DNA of 64,000 nucleotides from Elusimicrobia bacterium RIFCSPLOWO2_02_FULL_39_32 (lineage in GTDB: Bacteria > Elusimicrobiota > Elusimicrobia > 2-02-FULL-39-32), in assembly GCA_001800135.1 (NCBI GenBank), contig MGUU01000008.1:1-64000 (forward strand). Direction: 5' to 3'. Of the stretch, positions 1,909 through 31,900 are shown piece by piece (within the stretch, counting starts at the first letter, position 1; each line of letters opens with the position of its first letter). The position numbers were made by a program, and so were the translations under genes. The notes below the pieces were generated by a model that was not told the origin of the DNA, ran no database searches, and saw only the letters and a program-made list of their open reading frames with translations.

Positions 1909-1942
1909 AGGTTCAGTTCTTTATAAAGAGAGTAAATTTTTT

Positions 1943-2130
1943 TCTATTGGTGTTTGAAAAAACTTAATAAAGGAATTCCGTGCAAATCGGAAGCGGTCCC
2001 GCCGCTGTAATCCTGTCCTATCCTTATAAATAAGAATAGGCAAGCTTTTTAGCAATAAGCCACGAGTTTAGAATTTTAAACTGGGAAGGCGCTAAAAAAG
2101 TGCAGGAGAGCCAGAAGACTGACCAGTAGA
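1943..2130 (+). ncRNA. Cobalamin riboswitch (aptamer 1)
   Basis: Adenosylcobalamin-class aptamer. The P1 stem pairs TCTATTGGT (1943-1951) with ACCAGTAGA (2122-2130). The core has the conserved block with GCGGTCCCGCCGCTGTAA near 1992-2009, then AAGCCACGAG, the CTGGGAAGG element and the B12-box-like AGCCAGAAGACTGACC. It lies between a good promoter and an intrinsic terminator abutting cobC. High cobalamin is therefore expected to stop transcription of the late cobalamin operon. Confidence 0.9.
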
Positions 2131-2217
2131 TGTTTTTTGAAGCTTCTTCGTTTAGAAAAGGAGTCTTCAAGAGGTTTTATTTTTTATGTAAAACCTAAGG
2201 ACCAAGGAGTTGGGTGC

Positions 2218-10591: not shown

Positions 10592-10619
10592 AAGCCACAA
10601 TTACATCAAAAAATTAAAC

Positions 10620-10782
10620 ATGGGATAGATGTCAGGGAAGTCTCGTGAAAATCGAGCTCTGCCCCGCAACTGTAAACCGCGACGAAAGCTTAAAATAAGT
10701 CACTGGTCTAGTCACAAATTAGACTGGGAAGACCTTTAGCAAGTAGGAAGACCGGTAAAGACAGGAAACCTGGCTATCCAAT
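10620..10782 (+). ncRNA. Cobalamin riboswitch (aptamer 2)
   Basis: A closer match to the cobalamin consensus than aptamer 1. It has CAGGGAAGTCTCGTGAAAAT, the block CTGCCCCGCAACTGTAAACC, AAGTCACTGG, GACTGGGAAGACC and a B12-box-like AAGTAGGAAGACCGGT. The closing stem pairs GGATAG (10623-10628) with CTATCC (10774-10779). No intrinsic terminator follows. A hairpin with arms TGCGT/ACGCA lies between the aptamer and the GAGGGAG ribosome-binding site of the porin, so translational control is likely. Confidence 0.92.
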
Positions 10783-10835
10783 AAAGTTGCGTACGAAAAT
10801 AAATCGGAACGCATTCTTCGAGAGGGAGAACAATG

Positions 10836-12200
10836 ATGAAAAAAATTAAAGTTGTTGCAGCTGTATGTCTAGTAGTTTCTAGTTTCTTTTATGGAATTCA
10901 GAATCTTGGCGCTGTTTCAGAAGAGGAATTCCAATCCTTAAAAAACAAAGTGCAGGAATTGGAAAAATATACTTTCCCGCCTGAAAAAGCAGAGGAAATA
11001 AAAAAGGTAACTGAATATGTTTGTCCTCAAGGACATACCTATGCCTTCCCGCCAGAACATTTTATCTGTCCAGAAGATCGCCTAATTGTAAAAAAAAGGT
11101 TCGCTTTAATAAAAATGAAACTAGACAGAAGAGAGGCAGTTGGAGATAAAATTAGCAGCATGTTAGATGAAGAGTTTCAAAAAAGGGTGAATGTGGCGAT
11201 CTCTGGAACTGGAATAGTCCAACACATTGCTGAGAGTCTTGAAAGCGCCACTAAAAAACAAACTTTTGCTCAAGGTTCAATAGATGTTTATCTGCTCAGC
11301 AGGCCATTCATTAACACCTTGTTTTTTATTGACATAGAATCTCAAGGCGGACAGGGACCAGATTCTTCTATCCCAAACCAATCTGTGCTTAACAATGATA
11401 CAACCTCTTTACCTGGAGTAGTCCAGACAGATCAAGTGCGTTTAAGGGAGGCATGGTTACAAAAAACAGCCATGAGTCAAAAAATCCAGTTTATAATTGG
11501 TAAAATAGACCTGACTAATTATTTTGATCGTAACAGAGTTGCCAATGATGAGACCAGCCAATTTATAACTGGCGGATTGGTCAATAATTTGGTTATAGGC
11601 AATGCTCCAAACGGACCAGGAATGGCTCTTCTTTATGATTCTCACAAAGGGTTTGCTCTAGGTATAGGCGCGCAGAGCGCTGACGGGAATGGAGTGAATG
11701 TAACAGAAGAACCTTTTTCTATTTCTGAAATTGCTCTAAGATTTAGACTTTTGCATGGGGCTTTAGGAAATATTCGGTTTTGGGCTGCAAGAAATGGTAG
11801 AACTGTGGGAGAACATAGGGACGATTACTCCCTGGGAACTAGCCTGGATCAAGAGATCGGATCAAAAATGATTCTTTTTGGAAGAGTGGGTAGAGCTATA
11901 AAAAAGGAGCCGGTGCGAGATCCTCACTTCTGGAGCGCGGGGTTGATGTTACAGAATTTTATTCCTGCAAGAAGGCGAGATAAATTTGGGATTGGCTACA
12001 GTCACTTCTTAACTCCCATTGAAACTGGTCTTACAGCAGAAACTGAAAATATTGGAGAGTGTTATTACTCAATTTTTTTAAGTGACCATCTTAATCTTTC
12101 TCCCAACATTCAAACTATTTTTCATTCTGCGGGATCGTCCCAAGGAGCAGCGCAAAGCAATGTTTTAATATTAGGATTAAGAACACAGATCACATTTTAA
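10836..12200 (+). CDS. OprB-like outer-membrane porin with N-terminal metal-binding-type motif
   Basis: Exported outer-membrane protein of about 454 aa with a signal peptide in the first 27 residues. Tandem ATGs lie at 10833 and 10836; GGGAG at 10824-10828 favours 10836. Counting from 10833, a short coiled coil (about 29-60) precedes a Cys/His motif with C64, H68, H76 and C79, resembling the YxCPMHP...CP heavy-metal-binding domain with parts of the ligand set lost. The rest is beta-barrel-like, with the porin block RLREAWLQ...IIGKIDLTNYFD and a terminal phenylalanine. As the first gene behind riboswitch 2, it probably admits cobalt or a corrinoid; substrate unproven. Confidence 0.7.
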   Translation: MKKIKVVAAVCLVVSSFFYGIQNLGAVSEEEFQSLKNKVQELEKYTFPPEKAEEIKKVTEYVCPQGHTYAFPPEHFICPEDRLIVKKRFALIKMKLDRREAVGDKISSMLDEEFQKRVNVAISGTGIVQHIAESLESATKKQTFAQGSIDVYLLSRPFINTLFFIDIESQGGQGPDSSIPNQSVLNNDTTSLPGVVQTDQVRLREAWLQKTAMSQKIQFIIGKIDLTNYFDRNRVANDETSQFITGGLVNNLVIGNAPNGPGMALLYDSHKGFALGIGAQSADGNGVNVTEEPFSISEIALRFRLLHGALGNIRFWAARNGRTVGEHRDDYSLGTSLDQEIGSKMILFGRVGRAIKKEPVRDPHFWSAGLMLQNFIPARRRDKFGIGYSHFLTPIETGLTAETENIGECYYSIFLSDHLNLSPNIQTIFHSAGSSQGAAQSNVLILGLRTQITF

Positions 12201-12252
12201 AAATGGTGTAAATTTTTAAAGTACTTAAAATAAAAAATAAAAGGAGGAGTCA

Positions 12253-13455
12253 ATGAACAAAATAAAACTAATCATGAGCGGGCTGATTCTTTGTTTAGCC
12301 GTTAGCTCCAATGCGCAGATGGAATCTCTATCAGAGGAGAATAATCGTTTGTTTGTGGCAAACCAAGATTCAGATTATGTGTCAGTTATTGATTTAAAAA
12401 CCTTGCAGCTCTCCAAAAAAATTAATTTGGATATTTTAAGCGCTTCACACATGACCATGGCATGGACTGGAAAAACTGGCCAAAAACTTCTTGTAACCAT
12501 GACAGGCAGGAATGAGGTGGCGATTGTGGATGTAGAAAAAGGGATTGTAGAAGCGAAGCTTCCAGTTGGAAGGTCCCCTGAACATTTTGCCATTGAAAAA
12601 AATAAAGATTATCCTGAATATTTTGCCTATGTCGCTAACTTTGACGATGGCTCAATCTCAGTGATTGACCTTGCGCTCAATAAAGAGATAAAAAGAATTA
12701 ATGGTTTTTATGAACCGCATGGGGTTACATTTAATGCAGACGCTTCCAAAGCCTATATTGCAAACTTTGGAGCCCATCGCATAGATGTCATTGATACCGC
12801 AAAACATGAAATTGCCAAACAATTGAGCATAGGAGATGTTTATCAAGTCGCTTTAAAAAACCCTTCGCGCTACTTATCGGAAATTAAAGGAATTGCCAAT
12901 GTGACTTTAACTTCAAATGGCCGGTATGGTTATGCCGCGGATGGAGATTCAAATCTCGTGGCAGTGATAGATACTGAAAAAGATAGCATTGTAAAAACCA
13001 TTCCAGTAGGAGAAGATCCGTGGAGAACTTATCACTCCCCAGATGGAAAATGGATGCTTGTGCCAAACAATGGGGATGAAACTGTATCTGTGATTGACGC
13101 TGAAAAACATAAACTAAGATCTACATTCCCAGCAGGCGGAACTATTACTGGAATTAATTTTGTATTGGGTGGGAAAAAAGCCTATGCCTTAGCTACCACT
13201 GAAAGCGAAGCGCTTCTCCATGTATATGATCTTCAAAAAATGAAAGAGAAAGGAACAATCTTAATTGGTAAAGGTCTCCGTTTAGAAACTGCTTCCACAT
13301 CTGTGGATGGTAAGACAATCTATGTAGCATCGTCAGTAGATAATTCCATCTATTCCATAGATGCTGAGACTGATAAAGTAACAAAAATTGCAAACGTAGG
13401 GATTACTCCTTGGGGAACAACCATTCAAGGAGACATGGCTTCTTATTGCCACTAA
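12253..13455 (+). CDS. Secreted YVTN-type beta-propeller protein
   Basis: A signal peptide (residues 1-21, ending SSNA) is followed by about seven repeats of the YVTN/YncE type: RLFVANQDSDYVSVIDLKT, YVANFDDGSISVIDL, YIANFGAHRIDVIDT and others. The protein should be a periplasmic or secreted seven-bladed propeller of about 380 residues. AAGGAGGAG gives a strong ribosome-binding site. It sits 52 nt after the porin under the same cobalamin riboswitch. Propellers of this kind bind ligands or partners, but the ligand cannot be read from sequence. A periplasmic partner of the porin is one possibility. Confidence 0.75.
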   Translation: MNKIKLIMSGLILCLAVSSNAQMESLSEENNRLFVANQDSDYVSVIDLKTLQLSKKINLDILSASHMTMAWTGKTGQKLLVTMTGRNEVAIVDVEKGIVEAKLPVGRSPEHFAIEKNKDYPEYFAYVANFDDGSISVIDLALNKEIKRINGFYEPHGVTFNADASKAYIANFGAHRIDVIDTAKHEIAKQLSIGDVYQVALKNPSRYLSEIKGIANVTLTSNGRYGYAADGDSNLVAVIDTEKDSIVKTIPVGEDPWRTYHSPDGKWMLVPNNGDETVSVIDAEKHKLRSTFPAGGTITGINFVLGGKKAYALATTESEALLHVYDLQKMKEKGTILIGKGLRLETASTSVDGKTIYVASSVDNSIYSIDAETDKVTKIANVGITPWGTTIQGDMASYCH

Positions 13456-14366
13456 ATAAAAATCCAAAGCCAACATTGGATTGTGAAATTTTTCTAGATT
13501 CTCACAAACAACGCTGGTCTTGGGATAGAAGATTAAAGCTTTTTGTTACAATTCTTCTAGTTTGTACTCTATTTGTTAGTCGAAACTATCTGCTAGGGGA
13601 CGAAAGATCAAAGATCAATGAAATCCCTGGTTTAAAAAAAGCAATAGTTCAAGCTATTCAAAAGTATTATTTTAAACCGGTTAACATAAATGAATTTGAG
13701 AAGAGTTCTTTGTCTGAAATATTACAAGTTTTGGACAAAGACTCTTCTTTAATTCAAAGCGAACCAAAAAAGTCAGATTTTGTCAGGGGTTTTAAGAATA
13801 AAAAAAGTATTAAAAATTATAAAATTATTGCTGAAAAAATTGGGGTTTTCCATATCTCTTATTTCTCTAAATCCACTGCTAAAGAATTTGAAAAGATCCA
13901 TAAAAAATTGACTAAGGATGGAGCTTCTAAACTGATCTTAGATTTAAGAGGAAATGAGGGTGGGGATTTTGATTCTTGCTTAAAAATAACAGAACGTTTT
14001 GTGTCGTATGGGGAAACATTAGCAATCATTCAGGAAAAAGAGAAAAAAATTATAAAAAAATCAGAAAATAAGGTCCCCATAAAAATTCCCATGGTCATTC
14101 TTGTGGACAGCAATACCGCATCTTCTGCTGAATTTCTTGCTTCATCGCTAAGAAAACACAATCAGGCAACAATTATTGGACTTCCCACACAAGGAAAAAG
14201 AACAGTTCAAAAAATGATTCCTGTAGAAACACTGTGGTTATCATTGACAGTTGGGACTTGGGAAATAACTGGAAATAGCGATGAGTCAGAAAAGATTGAG
14301 CCAGATTTTTTTATCGCTAATAAGGATCAGCAACTAGAAAAAGCTATCTCACTATGCAAACATTAA
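13446..14366 (+). CDS. Membrane-anchored S41-family (C-terminal processing type) peptidase
   Basis: The recognisable parts are a transmembrane segment (LKLFVTILLVCTLFVSRNYL) and the S41 core. LILDLRGNEGGDF is the oxyanion/substrate block, the catalytic serine is in SNTASSAEFLASSL, and the catalytic lysine is in PTQGKRTVQ. No PDZ domain is evident, so it is short for the family. The start is uncertain: TTG codons at 13410, 13446 and 13482 are in frame, and AAGGAG at 13427-13432 favours 13446, overlapping the end of the propeller gene. It overlaps cbiX by 13 nt. A protease is unusual in a cobalamin operon. Confidence 0.65.
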   Translation: MPLNKNPKPTLDCEIFLDSHKQRWSWDRRLKLFVTILLVCTLFVSRNYLLGDERSKINEIPGLKKAIVQAIQKYYFKPVNINEFEKSSLSEILQVLDKDSSLIQSEPKKSDFVRGFKNKKSIKNYKIIAEKIGVFHISYFSKSTAKEFEKIHKKLTKDGASKLILDLRGNEGGDFDSCLKITERFVSYGETLAIIQEKEKKIIKKSENKVPIKIPMVILVDSNTASSAEFLASSLRKHNQATIIGLPTQGKRTVQKMIPVETLWLSLTVGTWEITGNSDESEKIEPDFFIANKDQQLEKAISLCKH

Positions 14367-15166
14367 AAAAAGCGATCCTTTTGATTGGACATGGCTCTAG
14401 AGATCCTATTGCGGTAAAAGAATTTCTAGATTTTGCCAATGAGTTTCAAAGCAAAAATATCAAAACTTTTGGGAATGAAATGATAGTTACCAGCGCATTT
14501 TTAGAACTGAGCTCACCTACCATTCCTCAAGCGCTGCACACGCTTGCAAATGATGGGATAAACCAGATTACGGTAATCCCCTATTTACTCTTTAGCGCTG
14601 GCCATGTAAAAACTGAAATCCCTGAGATTTTAGAGGAATTTAAAAACAGGGTTCCTCAAATTAATATTCTTTATGGAAACTCTCTTTGGCCGCATAAAAA
14701 TATAATCCAATGCGCTAAAGAAAAAATTATGCAAAGTTTAAATAAATTCCCGCAAAACCATTCTAGGGATGTGGATATTTTAGTTGTGGGAAGAGGAGCC
14801 AGTGACAGCCAAGCGATTGAACAATTTACAGAAGCGGTCAATCATCTCCGTGTTGAAATACCTTGCCATACCTTAAACCATTGTTTTATAGCCCTTGCGG
14901 AACCAAAATATACAGAGACCTTGCCTGAAATATTGAACAATTCATGCAAAAAGTTACTTATCTTTCCTTTTTATCTATTCACTGGAATTTTGGTTAATAG
15001 AATTCAACACCAGGCAGAAGAGGCTAAAAAAATATATAAAGAGGCTAGAATAGAAATTGCGCCTTACTTTGGTTCAGATCCCCTCATGTTTCAAATGTTA
15101 AAAGAAAAAGTGGTCGAAACTTCTAATAACTTAAATAATTTATTAGGCGCTCTTAAGAATTATTAA
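14354..15166 (+). CDS. cbiX: Sirohydrochlorin cobaltochelatase, long CbiX type
   Basis: Class II chelatase that inserts cobalt into sirohydrochlorin, the committed step of the cobalt-early corrin route. At 270 aa it is the duplicated long form. The N-terminal half has the metal-binding histidines in LIGHGSRDP and LFSAGHVKTEIP. The C-terminal half has VVGRGASD and FYLFTGILVNR, where the histidines are missing, as in other long CbiX proteins with a single active half. Its first codons overlap the S41 peptidase gene. Confidence 0.9.
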   Translation: MQTLKKAILLIGHGSRDPIAVKEFLDFANEFQSKNIKTFGNEMIVTSAFLELSSPTIPQALHTLANDGINQITVIPYLLFSAGHVKTEIPEILEEFKNRVPQINILYGNSLWPHKNIIQCAKEKIMQSLNKFPQNHSRDVDILVVGRGASDSQAIEQFTEAVNHLRVEIPCHTLNHCFIALAEPKYTETLPEILNNSCKKLLIFPFYLFTGILVNRIQHQAEEAKKIYKEARIEIAPYFGSDPLMFQMLKEKVVETSNNLNNLLGALKNY

Positions 15167-15186: not shown

Positions 15187-15939
15187 TTGGCCCAACAAAA
15201 AAAAGCAATAATTCTTGAATCTAAACCTTTAAATGAGGAAACCAAACTACTTCACTTAAAACTGGAGGAGGGGCAAACATTAAATTTTACAGGAGGCCAA
15301 TATGTTATTGTCAATACGAATATTTCTCTGCCTCAAGGCAAGCTCGCCAAACGGGCTTATTCCATACTTTCCAGAGATAATGATCAAGACAAATTTCAGA
15401 TAGCGGTTAAAAAAATATTGGACGGACCAGCCTCAAATTATTTTCATGACTCTGCTCCCGGAACAACCATTCCTTTTAGCGGCCCTTGGGGGCAATTTTT
15501 CTGTGATCCATCCACTAAAATTCAAAAAGCAATGGTCATTGCCACAGATACTGGCATTACAGCTGCTTTAGGGCTTATCCAAAGTCAAAACTTTAAAAAC
15601 TGCGTGAAAAAATTTTATTTGCTCTGGCTGGTTGAATCTTTAAACTATTTTTTACCTCCATCCTTTTTAGAAGAAAAACTGGGCGCGGATTGCGCAGGCT
15701 TTTTTATTAGAATCATCCCGGGAGTTTGGAATCCAGAAAGAGGCGCCAGATCCTTAGAACTATTTAAACTTTTTCTTGAGGATCGTATGGGTGAGCTCAG
15801 TTTTCTTTCCGGAGATGGGAATCTGCTTTACCCATTTAAAGACGAACTTTTAGCCCAGGGGTTTAATGACTCACAAATTAAAATTGAATGTTTCTTTAAT
15901 AACCCATTTAAAAAAATTACAACCCAAAGGTTGGTTTAG
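15187..15939 (+). CDS. Ferredoxin-NADP reductase-like flavoprotein
   Basis: 250 aa with the FNR-type layout. A flavin-binding barrel has the RAYSILS motif (about residues 58-64) and SGPWGQFF. It is followed by a nucleotide-binding half with VIATDTGITAALGL in place of the usual GTGIAP, and a terminal block resembling the NAD(P)H-binding CGP...E segment (GDGNLLYPF). The start is a TTG with a weak ribosome-binding site. It lies between cbiX and cbiC, two genes before bluB. It could supply reduced flavin to BluB, reduce Co(II) for adenosylation, or replace the missing CbiJ reductase. These are inferences from context. Confidence 0.7.
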   Translation: MAQQKKAIILESKPLNEETKLLHLKLEEGQTLNFTGGQYVIVNTNISLPQGKLAKRAYSILSRDNDQDKFQIAVKKILDGPASNYFHDSAPGTTIPFSGPWGQFFCDPSTKIQKAMVIATDTGITAALGLIQSQNFKNCVKKFYLLWLVESLNYFLPPSFLEEKLGADCAGFFIRIIPGVWNPERGARSLELFKLFLEDRMGELSFLSGDGNLLYPFKDELLAQGFNDSQIKIECFFNNPFKKITTQRLV

Positions 15940-15986: not shown

Positions 15987-16631
15987 ATGAATGACATGAG
16001 ACAAATGACTGGTTTAGGCAGAAACATTGAAGAAAACAGTTTTGCCATTATTGATCAAGAGGCTGGGCAACACCCATTTTCTCCTGAGGAGTGGCAAGTT
16101 GTACGCAGGGTCATACACTCTACCGCTGATTTTGAATATAAATCTTTAGTTGAGTTTCACCCTCATGCTATTCAATCTGGAATTGCCGCATTAAAGAATG
16201 GCTGTTCTATCATTGTGGATGTTAAAATGATTCAAGCAGGCTTAAATGAAGATCGCCTAGGCGCTTATGGATGCAAAATAAGCTCTTTTATTTCTGATGA
16301 AGATGTAATTAAAAAAGCAAAAGAAAAAAATTCTACTAGAGCGATTGAGGCAATGAAAAAGGCTCATGAGTTAAAAATACTAGATGGTTCAATTGTGGCT
16401 ATAGGCAATGCGCCCACAGCTCTGCTTGAAATAGCAAGACTTATTAAGGAAGAAAACGCAAAACCAGGGTTAATCATTGGTGTGCCTGTTGGCTTTGTAT
16501 CTGCCAAAGAGTCTAAGGAAGCGATCCTTAACTTAGATTCTCCCTATATTGTATCTAAAGGAAGAAAAGGGGGAAGCGCCATCGCAGTAGCTGTTATTCA
16601 CGCGCTCCTATTTCTTTCAGCGCAGAATTAA
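15987..16631 (+). CDS. cbiC: Cobalt-precorrin-8 methylmutase
   Basis: CbiC/CobH moves the methyl group from C-11 to C-12 to give cobyrinate. The catalytic histidine is in RVIHSTADFEY (about residue 44). IVDVKMIQAGL, AIGNAPTALLE and GVPVGFVSAKESK are family blocks. At 214 aa its length is normal. AAAGGTGG gives a clear ribosome-binding site 7 nt before the ATG. Confidence 0.95.
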   Translation: MNDMRQMTGLGRNIEENSFAIIDQEAGQHPFSPEEWQVVRRVIHSTADFEYKSLVEFHPHAIQSGIAALKNGCSIIVDVKMIQAGLNEDRLGAYGCKISSFISDEDVIKKAKEKNSTRAIEAMKKAHELKILDGSIVAIGNAPTALLEIARLIKEENAKPGLIIGVPVGFVSAKESKEAILNLDSPYIVSKGRKGGSAIAVAVIHALLFLSAQN

Positions 16632-16680: not shown

Positions 16681-17319
16681 ATGGAACTCTACGAAGCTAT
16701 ATTTAAACGCCGGGACATAAGACAATTTAAATCTGATCCTATTCCTCAGGATGTTATAAAAAGGATTCTAAATGCAGCTCACTTTGCAGGCTCTGTGGGT
16801 TTCATGCAACCATGGAATTTTATTTTAATTGAAGATTTAACCATGCGAAAAAAAGTAAAGGAGAACTTTGATCATCAAAATGATCTGGCTGCTCTCAACT
16901 ATTCAGGAGATCGCAAAAATCTTTATAGTTCCCTTAAACTGGAGGGGATTTTAGATTCTGCCTTTAATATTTGTGTTACCTGTGATAGAACCCGCAAAGG
17001 GCCGCATGTTATTGGCAGGAATTCAATTCTGGATGTGGATATTTACAGCACTTGCTGCGCCATCCAAAACTTATGGCTTGCAGCTCGATCTGAAGGTGTG
17101 GGGGTAGGCTGGGTCAGTATTTTAGATAATAATAACCTAAAAACTTTACTTGAAATTCCAGAACATATTCTGCCAGTAGCTTATCTTTGTGTGGGTTATC
17201 CATTAGAGTTCAGGGACAAGCCTTTGCTGGAAGAAATTGGTTGGGAGAAAAGAGAAAATCTGGATAGCCTTATTTTTTCAAATCTGTGGGGAAAAAGCTG
17301 GAATGGAACCAAAGAGTGA
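16681..17319 (+). CDS. bluB: 5,6-Dimethylbenzimidazole synthase
   Basis: Nitroreductase-fold enzyme that fragments FMNH2 with O2 to make the lower-ligand base. The N-terminal RRDIRQF and QPWNFILIED blocks hold flavin contacts. The stretch from VIGRNSILDVDIYST through NLWLAARSEGVGVGWVSIL is characteristic of BluB rather than generic nitroreductases. At 212 aa its length is normal. It overlaps cbiD by 17 nt. Its oxygen requirement contrasts with the cobalt-early corrin genes around it. Confidence 0.9.
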   Translation: MELYEAIFKRRDIRQFKSDPIPQDVIKRILNAAHFAGSVGFMQPWNFILIEDLTMRKKVKENFDHQNDLAALNYSGDRKNLYSSLKLEGILDSAFNICVTCDRTRKGPHVIGRNSILDVDIYSTCCAIQNLWLAARSEGVGVGWVSILDNNNLKTLLEIPEHILPVAYLCVGYPLEFRDKPLLEEIGWEKRENLDSLIFSNLWGKSWNGTKE

Positions 17320-18406
17320 AGAGAAAAAAAATTTAAGAACTGGCTGGACCACTGGCGCTTGTTCTGCTGCTGCGGCAAAAGCAGCTGCGTTTTGTTTAAT
17401 TCATCAAAAAAATATAAAAGATATTGAAATTAGAATTCCAATGGGTAAGCAGGTAAAATTTAATCTTAAACGCTGTGAATTTAATAAAAATGAAGCGACC
17501 TGCTCTGTGATTAAAGATGCAGGAGATGACCCAGACTGCACCAATGGCGCTGAACTAACCGCAACTGTTCTTTGGATTAACCAAAAAGGAGCGATAGTTT
17601 TAGACCGGGGACAAGGAGTAGCAGTTATTACTAAAAAAGGTCTTGGCTTAGAAGTTGGGGGACCAGCCATTAACCCTGTTCCCAGAAAAAATATTACTGA
17701 GATGGTTCAAGAAACAGCTGGCCCATTTTTAAATGAACAGGGTTTAAAAGTTTTGATTTCTGTTCCACGTGGTGAAGAGATGGCAAAAGAAACTCAAAAT
17801 GAACGTTTAGGAATTTTAGGAGGAATTTCAATTCTGGGAACCACTGGCACTGTAGTTCCTTTTTCCACAGCAGCTTATAAAGCATCTATTGCTCAAGGAA
17901 TTGATATTGTTCTTGCCGCGGGACATGACACTGTAGTTTTAACTACAGGGGGAAGAAGCGAAACCTATGCCATGAAAATTTTAGGGTTTCCTAATGAATG
18001 TTATGTTCAGATGGGAGACTTTGTAGGATTTTCTACCAAACAGGCTGCTCTTAAAGGCATAAAAAAAGTAATTCTTTGCGGCATGCCGGGGAAAATGTCT
18101 AAAATTGCTACTGGTAAGATGCAAACACATGTTGCTGGCAGCCAAGTTGACATGACATTTCTTGCTGAAATGGCAAAAGAAGTTGGAGCCTCACAATCTG
18201 TAATTGAAGAAATCATAAAAGCCAATACAGCTCGCCATGTTCATGAAATTCTAACTCAACATGGCATTACAGAATTGTGGAATGAGGTGGCGCGTAAGGT
18301 GTGTGAGGTTTGCCATAAAAATTCTGAAGGCAAAATCATCATAGAATGTATCTTAACTGATTTCGATGGTCAAATTTTGGGGCGCTATGAAAAAAGAACA
18401 AACTGA
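17303..18406 (+). CDS. cbiD: Cobalt-precorrin-5B C1-methyltransferase
   Basis: CbiD methylates C-1 during ring contraction, a hallmark of the cobalt-early route. The N-terminal LRTGWTTGACSAAAAKAA is diagnostic. Further blocks are IKDAGDDPDCTNGAE and GTTGTVVPFSTAAYKASI. The ATG at 17303 starts inside the end of bluB; the longer in-frame extension upstream is not supported by family length. The product is about 367 aa. It overlaps the next gene by about 20 nt. Confidence 0.95.
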   Translation: MEPKSEEKKNLRTGWTTGACSAAAAKAAAFCLIHQKNIKDIEIRIPMGKQVKFNLKRCEFNKNEATCSVIKDAGDDPDCTNGAELTATVLWINQKGAIVLDRGQGVAVITKKGLGLEVGGPAINPVPRKNITEMVQETAGPFLNEQGLKVLISVPRGEEMAKETQNERLGILGGISILGTTGTVVPFSTAAYKASIAQGIDIVLAAGHDTVVLTTGGRSETYAMKILGFPNECYVQMGDFVGFSTKQAALKGIKKVILCGMPGKMSKIATGKMQTHVAGSQVDMTFLAEMAKEVGASQSVIEEIIKANTARHVHEILTQHGITELWNEVARKVCEVCHKNSEGKIIIECILTDFDGQILGRYEKRTN

Positions 18407-20875: not shown

Positions 20876-21277
20876 ATGACTATAGAAAAAATCTGGCAGG
20901 AACTTCAAAACTATGATGAGACAAAAAGCTCAAAAAGTTTTCAGCTAAAAGATTTAAGAATTCAATTTTATAAAGGGGCCATGGAAATCCCTTTAATTGC
21001 GTTTTTCCCAAGCCAGCACTTTGATTTGAATTCTTCAAAAATGAATGAATTTTCTAAACTTCTTGAAAAACAAGGATTGGTTTTAGATTGCGTAACAGAA
21101 ACGGCTAACTATAAAATTAATACGAATGATGAGCAACAATATATTGGAAGAATCACAAAAGATGCCTTAAAATTACATGCCATTAGAATAAAAGAATTGG
21201 GCAAAGAGTGTTTTGAATCGCTTATCTCCTTTTTTATTAACCCTAATAATCTGTTTGTTTCAAGGAATTTGGAATAG
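20876..21277 (+). CDS. Conserved-looking protein of unknown function in the corrin operon
   Basis: 133 aa, soluble, no signal peptide or membrane segment. I do not recognise a family. The centre has a strand-like LRIQFYKGAMEIPLIAFFP, followed by a helical C-terminal half. It is 18 nt after cbiG and 88 nt before the cbiH-cbiL fusion, in the same direction and with similar base composition, so it is probably a real member of the operon. It is too short to be a canonical CbiJ. Confidence 0.55.
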   Translation: MTIEKIWQELQNYDETKSSKSFQLKDLRIQFYKGAMEIPLIAFFPSQHFDLNSSKMNEFSKLLEKQGLVLDCVTETANYKINTNDEQQYIGRITKDALKLHAIRIKELGKECFESLISFFINPNNLFVSRNLE

Positions 21278-21365: not shown

Positions 21366-23114
21366 ATGGAACAAAATGAGCAGATGAAACCTAAAGGAAA
21401 ATTATTATTAGTTGGCTTTGGACCAGGGGATCATGACCACTTAACTTTTCGCGCTAAAGAAGCGATTGGGGAAGCAGAAATTATTATTGGATACAGAACC
21501 TATATTAACCTTGTTAAAGAACTCATTGTTGGAAAACAGGTGATTTATACTGGAATGACTGAAGAACTTGCCAGAGCCAGACGCTCCATAGAAATAGCTT
21601 ATGAAGGAAAAAAAGTGGCTTTAATTTCTAGCGGAGATATTGGCATTTATGGGATGGCTGGCCCAGTTCTTGAGCTCTTAAAAGAAAGGGGTTGGAAGCC
21701 AGGAGAAGGGATAGAAGTAGAAATTATCCCAGGTGTGACTGCTCTTACCTCTTGCGCTTCTGTTTTAGGAGCGCCTCTCATGCATGATTTCTGTTCAATT
21801 TCATTATCTGATCTTCTCACCCCCTGGGATATCATAGAAGCGCGGATTGAAGCTGCGGCAAAAGCGGATTTTGTGGTTGCGCTTTACAACCCAAAAAGCG
21901 GCCGTAGAACTAGACAAATTCAAGAGACTCAAAAAATCTTACTTAAATATCGTTCCTCAGATACCCCTGTGGGTCTAGTTAAATCCTGTAAAAGAGATAT
22001 GGAGCAGATTGTTATTACAGATCTAAAAAACATGTTAAATCACGAAATTGGCATGCTCACCACAGTGATTATTGGGAATACGAATAGCTTTCGTTATCTG
22101 GATTTTATTGTCACACCCAGAGGTTATAAAAATAAATATGATCTGGAATCCAGCAAAGTAAAAGAGGGACAAAGAGCTGGTATTTCTTTAAATACAGAAC
22201 TTTTACAAAGCCCGTATAAAAAAGTTAATGTAATTTCTGATCCAGAATCTGATTCAACCTCTTTAACTTCTATTTCACAAACTCCATTATCTCCTTTCTT
22301 AAAAGATGAAGATAGAAAAGAGAATCAGGCTGGAAATAACAGAAACTGGGGAACTCTTTATGGCATAGGCGTTGGACCTGGGGACCCCGAGCTCTTAACA
22401 GTTAAAGCGACTAAAGCTTTAACTAAAGTCTCTCATATTTTTTACCCATCCTCCAACGGAACAGATGAAAGTATGGCTTTAAATATTATTGAACCTTACT
22501 TACAAGAAAACACTAAATTTCATACACTTTTTTTTCCAATGACCAAAGATAAACAAGAACTAGAAACTCATTGGGACTTAGCTGCTGATACTGTGGCAAA
22601 AATACTTTCACAAGGCGAGGATGCTGTTTTTGTAACTTTAGGAGATCCAATGATTTATAGCACTTACTTTTATCTTTTAAAAACTCTAAAAGCAAGATAC
22701 CCTCAAATCACATGGGAAACCATTCCTGGAATTAGCTCCTATCAATCTGCGGCAAGTTTAATAGATTCTGCCATCAGTGAGGGAAAAGATCGCGTTGCTC
22801 TTATCCCTGTCAATAGAGACGCAAGTAACATTGAAGATGCCTTAGATCAATATGAAACCATTGTTCTTTTTAAAGTAGGATCTAAACTTCCTAAAGTTCT
22901 AGAAATTTTGGAGAATAAAAATCTTTTAGATCAAGGAACACTTTTTAGTTATCTTGGAACCCCAGAACAGTTTATTGAAAGTGATTTAAGAAAAGTTAAG
23001 AGAGAAAAAATAGGATACATGTCCCTTTTAATAGTTAAGAAAAAGAAAGAGATTGTTTCCAGTGAGGAACCAGATGAGGTTGAAGTCCCTGCTAAAGAAT
23101 CAGCATTAGCTTAA
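21366..23114 (+). CDS. cbiHL: CbiH-CbiL fusion: cobalt-precorrin C17- and C20-methyltransferases
   Basis: Two SAM-dependent tetrapyrrole methylases in one 582-aa chain. Residues about 12-250 are CbiH/CobJ (LLVGFGPGDHDHLTFRA, IIIGYRTYINLV, SSGDIGIYGMAGPVLELL), the C17 methylation and ring-contraction enzyme. A variable linker of about 70 residues rich in Ser/Asp/Glu follows (about 255-325). Residues about 326-560 are CbiL/CobI (YGIGVGPGDPELLTVKA, VTLGDPMIYSTY), the C20 methyltransferase. The order in the chain is the reverse of the pathway order. AGAGAGG precedes the ATG. Confidence 0.92.
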   Translation: MEQNEQMKPKGKLLLVGFGPGDHDHLTFRAKEAIGEAEIIIGYRTYINLVKELIVGKQVIYTGMTEELARARRSIEIAYEGKKVALISSGDIGIYGMAGPVLELLKERGWKPGEGIEVEIIPGVTALTSCASVLGAPLMHDFCSISLSDLLTPWDIIEARIEAAAKADFVVALYNPKSGRRTRQIQETQKILLKYRSSDTPVGLVKSCKRDMEQIVITDLKNMLNHEIGMLTTVIIGNTNSFRYLDFIVTPRGYKNKYDLESSKVKEGQRAGISLNTELLQSPYKKVNVISDPESDSTSLTSISQTPLSPFLKDEDRKENQAGNNRNWGTLYGIGVGPGDPELLTVKATKALTKVSHIFYPSSNGTDESMALNIIEPYLQENTKFHTLFFPMTKDKQELETHWDLAADTVAKILSQGEDAVFVTLGDPMIYSTYFYLLKTLKARYPQITWETIPGISSYQSAASLIDSAISEGKDRVALIPVNRDASNIEDALDQYETIVLFKVGSKLPKVLEILENKNLLDQGTLFSYLGTPEQFIESDLRKVKREKIGYMSLLIVKKKKEIVSSEEPDEVEVPAKESALA

Positions 23115-23750: not shown

Positions 23751-24524
23751 ATGAAAGAAAATAAAAAAATATATTTTGTGGGAGCTGGACCCGGGGACCC
23801 AAAACTAATTACTCTTAAAGGAAAAGAGTTAATAGCAGCTGCGGATACAATTGTTTATGCTGGTTCCCTGATTAATCCTGAACTATTAACTTACGCCAAA
23901 AAAGAAGTTGATCTTTATGATAGCGCTAAAATGACTTTAGAGGAGATTACTCAGGTATTAATTTCATCCTATAAAGCTAAGAAATGCACAGTGCGTTTAG
24001 CCTCTGGGGACCCTACTATCTTTGGCGCTATTGACGAAATGGATGAGATTCTTCAAAATCATGAGATTGAAATTGAAGTGGTGCCTGGGGTTAGTTCATT
24101 TGTGGCAGCAGCCAGCTCTTTAAAACTTTCCCTTACAGTGCCGGACGTGGCTCAAACTGTGATCTTAACTAGGGGGGAAGGACGAACCAAAATGCCTTTA
24201 AAAGAAAAATTAAAGGATCTGGCCCAACACCAATCTACCCTGATTCTTTTTTTAAGCGCTGCTTTAGCCAAATCCGTGCAAGAAGATCTGCTTACAGCCT
24301 ATCCTCCCCAAACCCCAATCGCTATTTGTTATAAAACCAGTTGGCCAGATCAAAAAATATTTAGAGGAACTTTAGAAGAACTAGAACAAATCATGCGCAG
24401 GGAAAAAATAACAATGACCGCCCTAATTTTAGTAGGTCAATTTTTAACAGCCGCTGGCCATAAATCCAAACTCTATGATAAAACATTTACTCATGCTTAT
24501 AGAAAAGCCCTTAGCCCCTCATGA
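23751..24524 (+). CDS. cbiF: Cobalt-precorrin-4 C11-methyltransferase
   Basis: Tetrapyrrole methylase of 257 aa. The CbiF/CobM signatures are FVGAGPGDPKLITLKG, IVYAGSLINPELL, RLASGDPTIFGAIDEMDE and the C-terminal TALILVGQFL. It methylates C-11 of cobalt-precorrin-4. Its last four bases overlap the next gene (ATGA), indicating coupled translation with the ParB/SerK-like gene. The 85-nt gap before it holds an 8-bp inverted repeat (CATCCCTT / AAGGGATG) without a T-run. Confidence 0.95.
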   Translation: MKENKKIYFVGAGPGDPKLITLKGKELIAAADTIVYAGSLINPELLTYAKKEVDLYDSAKMTLEEITQVLISSYKAKKCTVRLASGDPTIFGAIDEMDEILQNHEIEIEVVPGVSSFVAAASSLKLSLTVPDVAQTVILTRGEGRTKMPLKEKLKDLAQHQSTLILFLSAALAKSVQEDLLTAYPPQTPIAICYKTSWPDQKIFRGTLEELEQIMRREKITMTALILVGQFLTAAGHKSKLYDKTFTHAYRKALSPS

Positions 24525-25989: not shown

Positions 25990-28900
25990 TTATTGCTGCT
26001 GCGCGAAAACGCCTATTTCTTGAATATCTTCTTGCATATTAGTATCTAGGAGCGGTGTAGCATTCAATGAGTTTCCAATCAAGCTTAAGAAACTAATCAC
26101 AGCATTCTTTAAATTCTCATACTGTTCAATATTGTCCAATAACTCTTTTAGATTGCCAACCAAATTTCGTGGGATAAAAAGCCTTAGGGGAACTGAACTT
26201 TTCTGCCTCACTGTTCCCACTATTTCATCCAAAACAGCTGGATCTAAAGAATAATTCCCTTCTCTAAACCTGATTAGTCCTGGATCAGCTTTAACTTCAA
26301 GGCTAATCCCTCTCTTAACAGAAAGACGATTGATGGCCCAAATCTCTGCCTCAGATAAATTGCCGCTTAATATGGTAAGTCTGGAATTAGAAACCCCTTT
26401 CGCGCTCAGATGATAAGCGGAAATAATTTGCTCTGCATATCTGACTTTATTTTTAACTAAAGGATCCAAGAGAGCCACAGTGCTGGAATAATCTTCCATC
26501 TTGGACTTTACAAGAACATTCTGGAACTTGTCATTCTTAAATCCAGCCAAAACAACTTGGCTTAAAGAACGGTTTATTTCTTTAGAAGACATTGTGCTGC
26601 CAGTCTCCTCCTGCAATTTTTGTCCAAGATATTCATAGAACTCTTGCGGATCATCTACGGCGCGAAGAAGATCTAAAGCAGGATTAGATATCCCTTTATC
26701 CCCAAGAACAGTTTGAACGTCTAAAGATTGAGCAGTGTTTTGTAAAATCATAGGGACTATTTTTTGCATGTTTGAAAAACTATACAGTCGCTCCTCTTTT
26801 TCAAGTTTAGATATTGCGCGCGCAAAACCATCTGAAATTGAATAGGTTCGGCTATTTTTAGAACTTGAACTTTTTTTAACTTGGATTCCTTTAGCCTCTT
26901 TAAAAGTTTTTCCAATTTTAGCAGAGCCTAAATAGTTGGCGAACTGATGCGTTGGAAATGAAAGGAGTAGGACAGTTAAATTCTCCAGCCACGGAATATT
27001 CACTCCAAGCGCATGGAAAAAAGTTGTGGCAAGAATAGGCAAAACAAAGATGTTCACTGCGCTCACCAAACCTGCAACCACCACATTTCCAAAAGGAGCT
27101 TTTTCCGGCTGACCTTTAATTCTAAAATAAATAAATTCCGCCAAATGAGCAAGCCAGAAGGATCCCCAAACTAAACCATTGAATGTCTCAAATGAAGGAA
27201 GAGAAACATTCCCTGTGAAAAGCAAGTGCAGCAGATTTTCAATGGCAAGCGCAAACGCAACTGTACCTATAAAAAGAAGATTCTCTCTTAAAGAAGCTTT
27301 TCTCACATATTCTTCTGCTGTATATTGAATACTAAACCAGCGGGGGAGCAGCCCATCTCTTACAAAATTAAGCGTGGCAGTAGCAGTTGTTTTTCCTTCG
27401 AAACTTCTGATGATGGTAAGAATTTTTGCAAGTCCAATCATACGGCTGGAAAAACCGCGTTCATTATCGTACCACGCGTCAAAGGATAGAAATTCTCCCT
27501 CAACTCGAACGCTGTTTAAATCTAAAACACTTGAATGAAGATATCCTTTAACTTCATCAGAATCAATAGGATAAGGTTTGTCATGCAGATGAAAAATTCC
27601 GCTCATTTCCGGTCTTTCATAAGCCTGACGAAATATCTCTTTAACATCTTCGGTTGGAATCCCAACATACTCAGGCTTTAATTTTATTCTTACATTTACA
27701 ACTGAAGCTCCGCCATACCCTTCTCTTAAAGCCACAGCTGTGGTTCTTCCGATGAGTTCAGGCATTGCTTTGCCAATAGTCTGTCCAGCTCCAGAGCTGC
27801 TTAAGAGCATGGTTCTGGCTGCGGCAAACATTCTTTCCATTACATCATGCAAAGGTCCATGATTTAATCTTTGATCATTAGTAAGTTCATGCAAAGTAAT
27901 AGCGCTTACAAAATCAGCCATGTGCTTAACAAAGTAAAGAGCAACAGCCAAAGCGCCAGTTGTACAACTTCCAAGGGTGAATATCTCTTCTGCCCGGATC
28001 AGCTCTTGCAAAGCCTTATCTTGTAAATTCATGGCCCCTGGAATCACAAGCAGGGATTCTCCCTTTCCCGGATTGCCATAAATCATAATGTCACCTTGAA
28101 TTTCAAACCAATCTTTTTCTTTAAAACGATGGTACCCGCTTCCTGCTGCATGCAGATAGATTGGATGAAACCCCTTTGCCCTTAATTCAGCAATTTGTCT
28201 TTCCAAACCGCTAAGACTTGAGCCGTCAAAAACATCAATCCTAAGCCATCCTTTTTCATTGTTTCCGGCCAAAATCACAAAAGTGTTTGTTTTATCATCC
28301 CAGCCAGCATACTCAAATTTTATTCCGGGTCTTCCATAAACAGTATCGTTATTCAAAGCTTTCGCAGTAGCAATGACTTTTTCTTCTGTTGGTTTATAAA
28401 GAGTAACTCCCAAAATATTCACATTAGGATCCCCAATCGCTGCCAGAAGCATATTTTTGCCAGTGCGTCCTCCAACAGCGCTAATGATTAGATCAGCTTT
28501 TCCGCCATTCATCTCTTTAATTCTGGGTTTGGGTTCCAAGGGAACTACAGAAGGCAGGATAGAATAGGTTGCAGTTTGTCTCTTATTTTTGCTATTTCCT
28601 GGATTATCTTCCGCATCTTGCGCTAAATTCTCAATCATCGCTTGAGCAAGTCCTGATTCTCCCATCCAAATAGGAAGCGCCCAAAGCCGTCCTTTCCCTG
28701 TAATTTGAGGTTTACTAATCATGGCTAAAACTGGATTGTCAACCATATCTAAAGATGCTAAAGCTTCTTCTGTAACTTCAATTCTTCCGCCAGAAGCCCT
28801 AACCATTTCTCCAACCAAAGCAATGACCGCATCTCTTTCCAACTCTTCATCAAATTCAATTACAAAATTATGCAGATCACCTTCCAGACGAGTGGGGGTC

Positions 28901-31900
28901 TCAACTCTATAACCATCTGTTCTATAACTTACAGCAAATTCTGAATTGCGCAAAGGCACTGTGCTAAATATCCGAATGCTGGTATCATCTAAACCGCGCA
29001 ACGCTAAAGATTCTTTTAAATAATTTTTAAGAATTAATAAACCATCCATAGATGGCCGCACATGCCGTACCCCATTGAGATGATATGGCTCTCTTAAAGC
29101 CTCATAAGCGCTCATATCCTCTAAATCGTCGCTAACGACCAATATAGAATCAATATTATCTTCATTTAATATCTTGGAATCTTTAAGAATGGATTCACTG
29201 GAAATTTTAATTTTAGCTCCTTGAATATAGAGGTAGGTAAACCCCTGTTTTTCAAAATCGTTCTTATATTTTTCAAATTTTTTTACGTCAAAACCATCCA
29301 GATAGATGCGAATATGTTTAGGCAAACGTTTTTTAATCGCATGATAGAGAAATAAGACATCGCTCACATTCTTAACTCCATAAAAATTAAGAGAGAGTCT
29401 CTCATCTCCCATGAGATCAATGACTAGACTGGATGCAAAATGATCCAAAGGATTTCGCTGATTTGAATCAAATGGAATGTCGGATATTTCAACAGCTACC
29501 CTATTATAAACTCCCTTGGATTCTCTTTTTAATTTGGCTACTGGCGCTGGGATATATCTTTGACCTTCCGGCACCATTTTTCTATCGCTTTTAAATGGTT
29601 TCTTATCACTATCAGAAGAAGAAACAGATTTTTCTTTATCCCTTTCTAAAGACTCCTCTCTTTTATACTTATCCGGATCTTGAACCGCATCTAAAACAGC
29701 AGCTGCCCAAACATTTGCAAAGTCATAACCAAATAGGACTGTTACGGTTCTATGATCCACTATCACACTCCTAGGATCAAAATAGATAGAGCTCTCCCCT
29801 TGCACAAGACTAGGTCTTAAAGAATCGTATGGCTCTAAAACTTTAAGCCGCGAACCAGAAGCCTCTGCCACTTTTTTTAACCTTGAAACAACCTCCTCTT
29901 TAGTTAACTTTCGATCTAAAGTAAATGTGACTGCGGTTAAATGCGCATCGTACTGGCTGGATTGTACCTGAAGATAGCCTTTCCTCATTACTTTGGGCAA
30001 AAGATTTGCCATAGGAGCTGGAAGAATTTTACTGCCAACCACAATATCATGGCTCCTGTCGCGAGTAGGGTCAATAGCAGAATTGGTATGGACCACATGA
30101 CCTAACATATCCAAATCAGCAAATGCTGTTCGAGTTAAATTTACAGCCATCTCTACTGGAGTCATTTCATCAGTTGCCATGACAATATTTTTTGCTCCCA
30201 TTTGCCGATGGTGTTCAGGATCAATTTGACCGCCTGCTGCTTTATGAGCATAAATTACTGTATCTATTCCAAGTTTTTGCCAATTAGGAAGGACTTTGTT
30301 TGGATCTATTTTTTCTCCCTTCTTTATAGTTCCAAGAGCTTTGCTAAAAATGACTTTAATTGGAGAGGAGTGATTGATAATGATTGAATCTCCATCAGGA
30401 GCGATTTCAATATCGCTTTGCGGCATGATTTGGCGCAAATAGGCTACAAAGACATTTGTATCTAAAGGATTTTCCGTTGTTTCTTCCACATAGATATATT
30501 TAAGTATAACATCCTCTTTGCCGCGAAGCTGTTTGATTAATTGTCCTGAAACAACTTCATCTCCTCCATAAATCCCAATAATTTTTGGTTCGCTCTTTTT
30601 CCCTGTTTTTTCAGGATGCTGCGGAATTGATTGCGCGCTAAGGTTAACTTGATCTTGTCTTTGTTGAAGGGTTTTCAAATAAAAGTCATTTTCAAATTCA
30701 TCTTTTTCCCGTCTTTCAGCAGAACTCTGAATCTCTTTCAAAATATTGTCTGCTGCTACCCAGTCTGGAATCCATGCGCGAAGTGTCACTAAACGGCCAT
30801 TCCCCTGCACAGAAATGCTTTTATCTAAAATAAGAGGCTTATCATGTTCTTGCACGCTGATAGAATTAGGGATCCAGCCTCCTTCAGCAAAATAGATGGG
30901 CCAGCCTTGCAAATTAGCAGACCGTAAAATTTCCATCATTCCTTCAACATCCATTTTAATTCCTTCATCTAATATTAGATTTAACTGCGCATATCCTGCG
31001 CCTTCATGCGTATGAGACTCCCATTTTTCACCAAGACCTTTTTTAACTCCATGGAGCCGAAGATTTCTTGCGGCCTGATCTGATTTTTTCTGCAAGATAT
31101 GGCTTTCACCTGGAACCACTGAGATCAGTTCCCATTGTTTTAATTTATGGTTAAGAGCTCCATCTAAATACTCAATAAGGGGGGAAAGAGCAGTTGTGAG
31201 TCCTGTATTGTGATAGCGAACACGAGGTTTTGGGTTTGTATCTACAGGAGGATCCAATTCAGGATTTAGAACATGCGCCATTCTTCCTTCGTGCCAAGGT
31301 CGTTGACGTGGATCATCATCAAAATCATCTGGATCCTGGTCTGTTAAAAAAATAACATCTTTTGGTGATTCGCTTGAATATGAAACATATTTACCAGGTT
31401 TAATTACAATGGTTTTAGTCTGGCCTTGAGAATAGATGGAGATGCTCCATTCACTATTGCTCTGGAATTTGTCAACCTTTAGATCAAACTGAAACCTGCC
31501 TTGATAGGGGTTAGCTTTTAAATGGTCATAAAAGGCCTGGAACTCATTATCATTGTTAATTCCATAAATAGTTGAAATTTCAAAATTAGGATTAAACCCC
31601 TGTCCTCTTTTATCTCCCAATGCTCTGCGTACAATTTGTACAGCTGTATTTTTTATTGACAAGTTATCTCTCTTGCCAAATGCTCCATCCACATCTAACA
31701 CGATCTCTACTGGGACCATGAGAGTAACTTCGGTTGGTTCATCTTTTTCATCTTCTAAGATCGGAGCAAGATGATGCAGCGCTAATTCTTTAGCGTTGGA
31801 TTGCGTAGGCTGCGCCTCAGGAGCATTTTTCTCATCCCGGGCTAGTTTTAGTTTCCGAATCAGGTAAGGCCTAATCCCACCCCAAATAAGAGTAAAATAA

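What the first reader, a model, noticed from the sequence alone, without database searches (positions are those of the whole stretch)
15187..15939. FNR-like flavoprotein in place of the missing CbiJ reductase?
Seen: cbiX, L, H, F, G, D, E, T, C and A are all present but no cbiJ/cobK, while a ferredoxin-reductase-like gene lies between cbiX and cbiC. Established: one NAD(P)H-dependent ring reduction (CbiJ step) is required; BluB also needs reduced flavin and CobA needs Co(I). Inference: this protein may serve any of these, the CbiJ replacement being the most novel.
Basis: inference. Interest (0 to 1): 0.7.

Follow-up and report, generated by a model that had tools for sequence, protein, structure and literature searches.

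The report
Flavin reductase in vitamin B12 operon
A groundwater bacterium carries, inside a vitamin-B12-regulated B12 operon, a dedicated electron-delivering flavin enzyme of a small family shared with Leptospira, and it truly lacks the usual ring-reducing enzyme CbiJ; but close relatives lack both, so the idea that this flavin enzyme replaces CbiJ is possible and unproven.

Summary
Window 15187-15939 (+) encodes a 250-aa FAD-binding ferredoxin-reductase-type protein between cbiX and cbiC, in an operon that starts with a cobalamin riboswitch. No CbiJ is found in the 97%-complete genome, nor in any of the 7 of 340 phylum genomes that carry CbiD. The protein belongs to a distinct, B12-cluster-bound subfamily ("cob-FNR"). 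It is the only FNR-type protein in each host genome. It occurs in five genomes of one family and in the Leptospira interrogans cob cluster (34% identical), always in the cbiX-to-cbiC/cbiD slot. The replacement claim is only partly supported. Two relatives without CbiJ also lack cob-FNR: G278 (92% complete, BluB present) and G153 (80% complete). So do Thermus, Manganitrophus, Methylomonas and four beta-proteobacterial cob clusters. The CbiJ gap has been in print since 2004. In the clusters I compared, 14 of 16 CbiJ-less ones carry cob-FNR and/or a thioredoxin-like [2Fe-2S] ferredoxin, against 0 of 4 CbiJ-bearing ones. That is a small, post hoc, non-random sample. I conclude that it is a dedicated NAD(P)H-to-B12-pathway electron donor, most plausibly for a reductive ring-building step (CbiJ or CbiH step). 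CobA and BluB are live rivals.

The parts
15187..15939 (+). cob-FNR: 250-aa FAD-dependent ferredoxin/flavodoxin-reductase-type protein
   Evidence: PF00970 57.8 bits; nearest solved structures by sequence are cytochrome b5 reductase and benzoate dioxygenase reductase; AlphaFold model with full FNR fold, VIA Z about 20-22 over more than 220 residues
15352..15363 (+). codons 56-59, R-A-Y-S: the FNR-superfamily FAD-binding RxYS motif
   Evidence: invariant in the 6-sequence alignment A2; motif meaning from general knowledge of the family
15544..15564 (+). codons 120-126, T-D-T-G-I-T-A, where ordinary FNRs have GGTGI(T/A)P
   Evidence: A2 (T122 is I in Leptospira) against PDB relatives in the HMMER alignments
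15811..15819 (+). codons 209-211, G-D-G, in place of the C-G-(P/D) motif; no cysteine
   Evidence: invariant in A2; VYLCGPVPM in benzoate dioxygenase reductase
10610..10791 (+). cobalamin riboswitch upstream of the operon that contains the FNR gene
   Evidence: Rfam RF00174, 77.4 bits, E 2.4e-17
1931..2141 (+). cobalamin riboswitch upstream of the first cob operon (cobU...cbiA)
   Evidence: Rfam RF00174, 73.3 bits
2939..10591 (+). first cob operon: cobU, cobT, cobS, cobD-type aminotransferase, cbiP, cbiB, cbiA
   Evidence: ORFs; homologues in Leptospira, Thermus and Manganitrophus clusters
10833..14366 (+). OprB-type porin, YVTN-type beta-propeller, S41 peptidase between the riboswitch and cbiX
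   Evidence: Pfam; porin and propeller also flank the Manganitrophus cluster
14354..15166 (+). cbiX cobalt chelatase, 20 bp upstream of the FNR gene
   Evidence: PF01903 150 bits; spacing
15987..16631 (+). cbiC
   Evidence: PF02570 262.8 bits
16681..17319 (+). bluB (DMB synthase)
   Evidence: TIGR02476 255.5 bits, cut-off 150
17300..18406 (+). cbiD
   Evidence: TIGR00312 421 bits
18366..19655 (+). cbiET fusion
   Evidence: TIGR02467 and TIGR02469
19751..20857 (+). cbiG
   Evidence: PF11760, PF11761, PF01890
20876..21277 (+). orf133, family unknown, conserved only in this family's clusters
   Evidence: no Pfam or NCBIfam match; homologues in G053, G151, G153
21366..23114 (+). cbiH-cbiL fusion
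   Evidence: TIGR01466 and TIGR01467
23123..23665 (+). cobA corrinoid adenosyltransferase
   Evidence: 48% identical to Leptospira cobO
23751..24524 (+). cbiF
   Evidence: TIGR01465 324.7 bits

Best explanation
The gene encodes an NAD(P)H-dependent FAD reductase dedicated to the cobalt-early B12 pathway. It passes electrons to a cobalt-corrinoid intermediate, or to a carrier acting on it. The steps most consistent with its constant neighbours (cbiX, cbiC, cbiD) are the reductive ring-building ones: cobalt-precorrin-6A to 6B (normally CbiJ) or the reduction that accompanies CbiH. Shown: the gene, fold, FAD motif, riboswitch-headed operon, subfamily and absence of CbiJ. Inferred: redox activity, nucleotide used, acceptor and step. 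Rough split of probability: ring building about 0.45 (CbiJ step about 0.3, CbiH step about 0.15), CobA cobalt reduction about 0.25, BluB flavin supply about 0.2, other about 0.1.
For: FNR fold and FAD motif. Operon headed by a B12 riboswitch. Sole PF00970 protein in each of the five genomes that carry it. Always between cbiX (or cbiX-Fd plus DUF3209) and cbiC or cbiD in five genomes and in Leptospira, whereas bluB and cobA are not constant neighbours. All six form one clade, 100/100 support. No CbiJ in any of the 7 CbiD-bearing genomes. In the clusters compared, CbiJ and the electron-transfer genes (cob-FNR or Trx-like ferredoxin) did not co-occur: 14 of 16 against 0 of 4.
Against: G278 and G153 have neither CbiJ nor cob-FNR. 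The Leptospira homologue is reported deleted in L. santarosai 1342K and L. alstoni 80-412, although that text ties gene losses to subculture with B12. The NAD(P)-binding motifs are unusual and PF00175 is not detected, so NAD(P)H use is unproven. No biochemistry exists for any member that I found.
Confidence: 0.55

Rival explanations
1. Direct CbiJ replacement: cob-FNR itself reduces the C18-C19 double bond of cobalt-precorrin-6A with electrons from NAD(P)H via FAD.
For: CbiJ absent; the gene lies in the ring-building block in six of six clusters; CbiJ-bearing clusters compared lack cob-FNR.
Against: CbiJ-less clusters without it exist in its own phylum and elsewhere. CobK uses direct hydride transfer from NADPH in a double-Rossmann fold that traps the product (PMC4663756); an FNR fold has no such pocket that I could demonstrate.
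Confidence: 0.22
2. FMN reductase for BluB: it supplies FMNH2, which BluB needs but cannot make.
For: bluB lies one gene downstream in the window, and BluB occurs in 5 of 5 phylum genomes with cob-FNR; G153 lacks both. BluB requires flavin reduced elsewhere (PMC3573010). E. coli Fre shares the fold (1qfj, Z 19.7).
Against: Leptospira's cluster has cob-FNR and no bluB; its chromosome I was not searchable. In G154 bluB lies on another contig. G278 has BluB without any PF00970 protein.
Confidence: 0.2
3. Corrinoid Co(II) reductase feeding the adenosyltransferase CobA, like CobR or Fpr/flavodoxin.
For: A flavoprotein of this fold does this job in enterobacteria (general knowledge of Fpr/FldA); flavin-dependent CobR does it in the aerobic pathway (PMC7242693); cobA is in the same operon.
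Against: PMC7242693 says free flavin may suffice. cobA is not adjacent: about 7 kb away in the window and in Leptospira. G278 has cobA and no cob-FNR.
Confidence: 0.25
4. Bystander: a general flavoprotein that happens to sit in the operon and has no role in B12 synthesis.
For: Absent from many working-looking B12 clusters; deleted in two Leptospira strains.
Against: Same slot in five genomes and Leptospira with no copy elsewhere in the five genomes, purifying selection, B12-riboswitch operon.
Confidence: 0.08

Closest known systems
Leptospira LB_163 'flavodoxin reductase' in the cobI/III cluster (PMC4758666; L013:14911-15660)
   Same: Same subfamily and invariant motifs, same slot after CbiX, no CbiJ annotated in the stretch; one clade with 100/100 support
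   Different: 32-34% identity; Leptospira has a CbiX-ferredoxin fusion and DUF3209 beside it, and no bluB in the cluster
Bacterial ferredoxin/flavodoxin-NADP reductases (Fpr) and NADH-cytochrome b5 reductases
   Same: Two-domain FNR fold and RxYS motif
   Different: GGTGI(T/A)P is replaced by TDTGITA and the C-G-P motif by S/A-G-D-G, without cysteine
CbiJ/CobK precorrin-6A reductase
   Same: At most the reaction it might perform
   Different: Unrelated by sequence; CobK is a double Rossmann fold without flavin (PMC4663756)
Thioredoxin-like [2Fe-2S] ferredoxin of CbiJ-less cob clusters
   Same: Redox protein encoded in cobalt-early clusters lacking CbiJ
   Different: Unrelated fold and cofactor; absent from G000 and G053 by search

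Membership tests
Ferredoxin-NADP reductase (FNR) superfamily | N-terminal FAD-binding beta barrel with RxYS motif | tested here: met
   PF00970 57.8 bits against cut-off 21.1; RAYS invariant
Ferredoxin-NADP reductase (FNR) superfamily | C-terminal Rossmann-like NAD(P) domain | tested here: met
   Modelled with pLDDT about 90; Z about 20 over the whole length of FNRs
Classical NAD(P)H-binding FNR (narrower than the superfamily) | Canonical NAD(P) motifs GGTGI(T/A)P and CG(P/D) | tested here: not met
   TDTGITA and S/A-G-D-G instead; PF00175 not reported at E 0.001. Membership of the superfamily rests on fold and FAD motif; NAD(P)H use is not shown
CbiJ/CobK (PF02571) | Sequence match to PF02571 | tested here: not met
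   The protein hits only PF00970; no PF02571 in the genome
CbiJ/CobK (PF02571) | Reduction of cobalt-precorrin-6A | not testable with these tools
   needs enzyme assay or complementation
Corrinoid reductase (CobR-like function) | Flavin-dependent Co(II) to Co(I) reduction | not testable with these tools
   function only; no sequence comparison with CobR was made
BluB-linked flavin reductase | Occurs only with BluB | tested here: inconclusive
   5 of 5 in the phylum; Leptospira cluster lacks bluB but its main chromosome was not searched

The most novel reading that the evidence does not exclude
CbiJ-less cobalt-early B12 pathways reduce the corrin ring by electron transfer instead of direct hydride transfer from NAD(P)H. 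The donor is lineage-specific, either a thioredoxin-like [2Fe-2S] ferredoxin or cob-FNR, which would solve a pathway gap open since 2004.
Probability: 0.2. Interest if true: 0.8.

Novelty: new variant of a known kind. Interest (0 to 1): 0.42.

Why it matters
The missing cobalt-precorrin-6A reductase is a long-standing hole in B12 pathways of delta-proteobacteria, Geobacter and haloarchaea (PMC545781, PMC3543383, PMC3403918, PMC6719526). Relatives with and without cob-FNR, and clusters with and without the Trx-like ferredoxin, give a small defined set of genes to test for that step.

Tried and rejected
Genome-wide scan for the protein found only the sister species; viral contigs gave none. DUF3209, orf133, the ferredoxin and a ChuX/HutX-like domain were considered as the CbiJ substitute; none is common to all CbiJ-less clusters seen. 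A profile mixing ferredoxin and ChuX sequences misaligned and was dropped. Search of Spirochaetota genomes was not possible. Library searches for a published proposal that an FNR replaces CbiJ found none; the library lacks most subscription papers. Fold search showed only FNR-type folds among its top rows; absence of a CobK-like row there proves nothing.

Full report
Observation. The ORF at 15187-15939 (+) starts with TTG 20 bp after cbiX and ends 47 bp before cbiC. It encodes 250 aa with a Pfam FAD_binding_6 domain (57.8 bits). The sister species G053/JACPBF010000023 has a 92% identical copy in the same order, with dN/dS about 0.21. A cobalamin riboswitch at 10610-10791 (RF00174, 77.4 bits) precedes the co-directional run porin, propeller, S41 peptidase, cbiX, FNR, cbiC, bluB, cbiD, cbiET, cbiG, orf133, cbiHL, cobA, cbiF. 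That the run is one transcript is inferred from direction and spacing.

CbiJ. PF02571 gives no match in the genome at E 0.001. At E 10 only an 11.9-bit fragment with stops appears. Of 340 phylum genomes, 7 have CbiD, and none of the seven has CbiJ over the cut-off. The same search finds CbiJ in Synechococcus elongatus, Bacteroides ihuae and M. jannaschii among the controls. CbiC is found in those three and in four more controls that show no CbiJ over the cut-off. So a missing CbiJ is common, not special to this genome. Papers report it for delta-proteobacteria (PMC545781), Geobacter (PMC3543383) and haloarchaea (PMC3403918, PMC6719526, PMC8305020).

What the protein is. The alignment of six members keeps the RxYS FAD motif. 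It departs from ordinary FNRs at the nucleotide loop (T-D-x-G-I-T-A) and at the C-terminal motif (G-D-G, no cysteine). The AlphaFold model (pLDDT 87.3) matches FNRs, flavodoxin reductases and related reductases over the whole length. A 13-row tree puts the six cob-associated proteins, Leptospira included, in one clade at 100/100; the outgroup was small. PF00970 occurs once in each genome that has it, and not at all in G153 and G278.

Distribution. cob-FNR is present in G000, G053, G151, G155 and G154, always after cbiX (in G154 after a CbiX-ferredoxin fusion and DUF3209) and before cbiC. In G151 a ChuX/HutX-like ORF lies between it and cbiC. Leptospira interrogans has cbiX-Fd, DUF3209, cob-FNR, cbiD, cbiC. 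G153 (80% complete) has cbiX next to cbiC with no FNR, and no BluB was found in the genome. G278 (92% complete) has cbiX, cbiC, cbiD, ferredoxin plus ChuX-like domain, bluB, and no FNR.

Test of the replacement idea. If cob-FNR were the general CbiJ substitute, CbiJ-less clusters should have it. G278, G153, Thermus, Manganitrophus, Methylomonas, Ideonella, Sphaerotilus, Methylibium, Acidovorax and Thiodictyon do not. For the plasmid-borne clusters only the stretch shown was examined, not the host genome, and PLSDB gene tables are incomplete. A wider pattern did appear. 14 of 16 CbiJ-less clusters carry cob-FNR and/or a thioredoxin-like [2Fe-2S] ferredoxin, and none of the 4 CbiJ-bearing clusters (Azospirillum, Rhizobium Q54, Peptoclostridium, Deinococcus) carries either. 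This pattern was noticed after the fact. The sample is small, partly redundant and picked by similarity to the window's genes; two of the four CbiJ-bearing clusters also carry cobN and a precorrin-3B synthase gene. From memory, B. megaterium has both CbiJ and such a ferredoxin, so the avoidance is not absolute.

Which step. Constant neighbours are cbiX, cbiC and cbiD, which favours ring building. The known reductive steps there are the CbiJ step and, by my reading of the intermediates' names, the factor-to-precorrin reduction at CbiH. In several beta-proteobacterial and Methylomonas clusters the ferredoxin gene directly follows cbiH, which would fit the CbiH step. BluB supply fits the phylum data (5 of 5) but not G278, and not the Leptospira cluster unless bluB is elsewhere. 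CobA reduction cannot be excluded. I therefore hold the general statement (B12-dedicated electron donor) at 0.55 and each single step well below one half.

Verdict. Observation confirmed; interpretation partly supported; a new variant of a known kind of reductase, useful as a candidate in a known pathway gap.

Noticed in passing
25990-38244 (-): A single 4084-aa ORF with triosephosphate isomerase (117.5 bits) and glyceraldehyde-3-phosphate dehydrogenase C-terminal (59.2 bits) domains embedded far apart. Unusual giant fusion; function unknown.
   Followed up: partly
L035:9823-10542 (-); L028:12774-13166 (-): ChuX/HutX-like (haem-utilisation) domain encoded in CbiJ-less cob clusters, fused to a Trx-like ferredoxin in G278 and free-standing between cob-FNR and cbiC in G151. 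A possible tetrapyrrole-binding partner.
   Followed up: partly
L015, L016, L051, L054, L055, L056: Thioredoxin-like [2Fe-2S] ferredoxin gene in CbiJ-less cob clusters, in several directly after cbiH; a CbiX-ferredoxin fusion occurs in Leptospira, Thermus and G154, and CbiX-annotated haloarchaeal proteins also match the ferredoxin.
   Followed up: partly
10833-13455 (+): OprB-type porin and YVTN-type beta-propeller under a cobalamin riboswitch; the same pair flanks the Manganitrophus cob cluster. Possibly cobalt or corrinoid uptake.
   Followed up: no
20876-21277 (+): orf133, no family match, conserved between cbiG and cbiHL in G053, G151 and G153 only.
   Followed up: no
L035:7565-9163 (-): Radical SAM/SPASM protein inside the G278 cob cluster between bluB and cbiET.
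   Followed up: no
L030:1922-5668 (+): G154 carries a Leptospira-like block (cbiX-Fd 47% identical, DUF3209 51%, cob-FNR) in a phylum where the other members lack it, suggesting transfer or mosaic ancestry.
   Followed up: no
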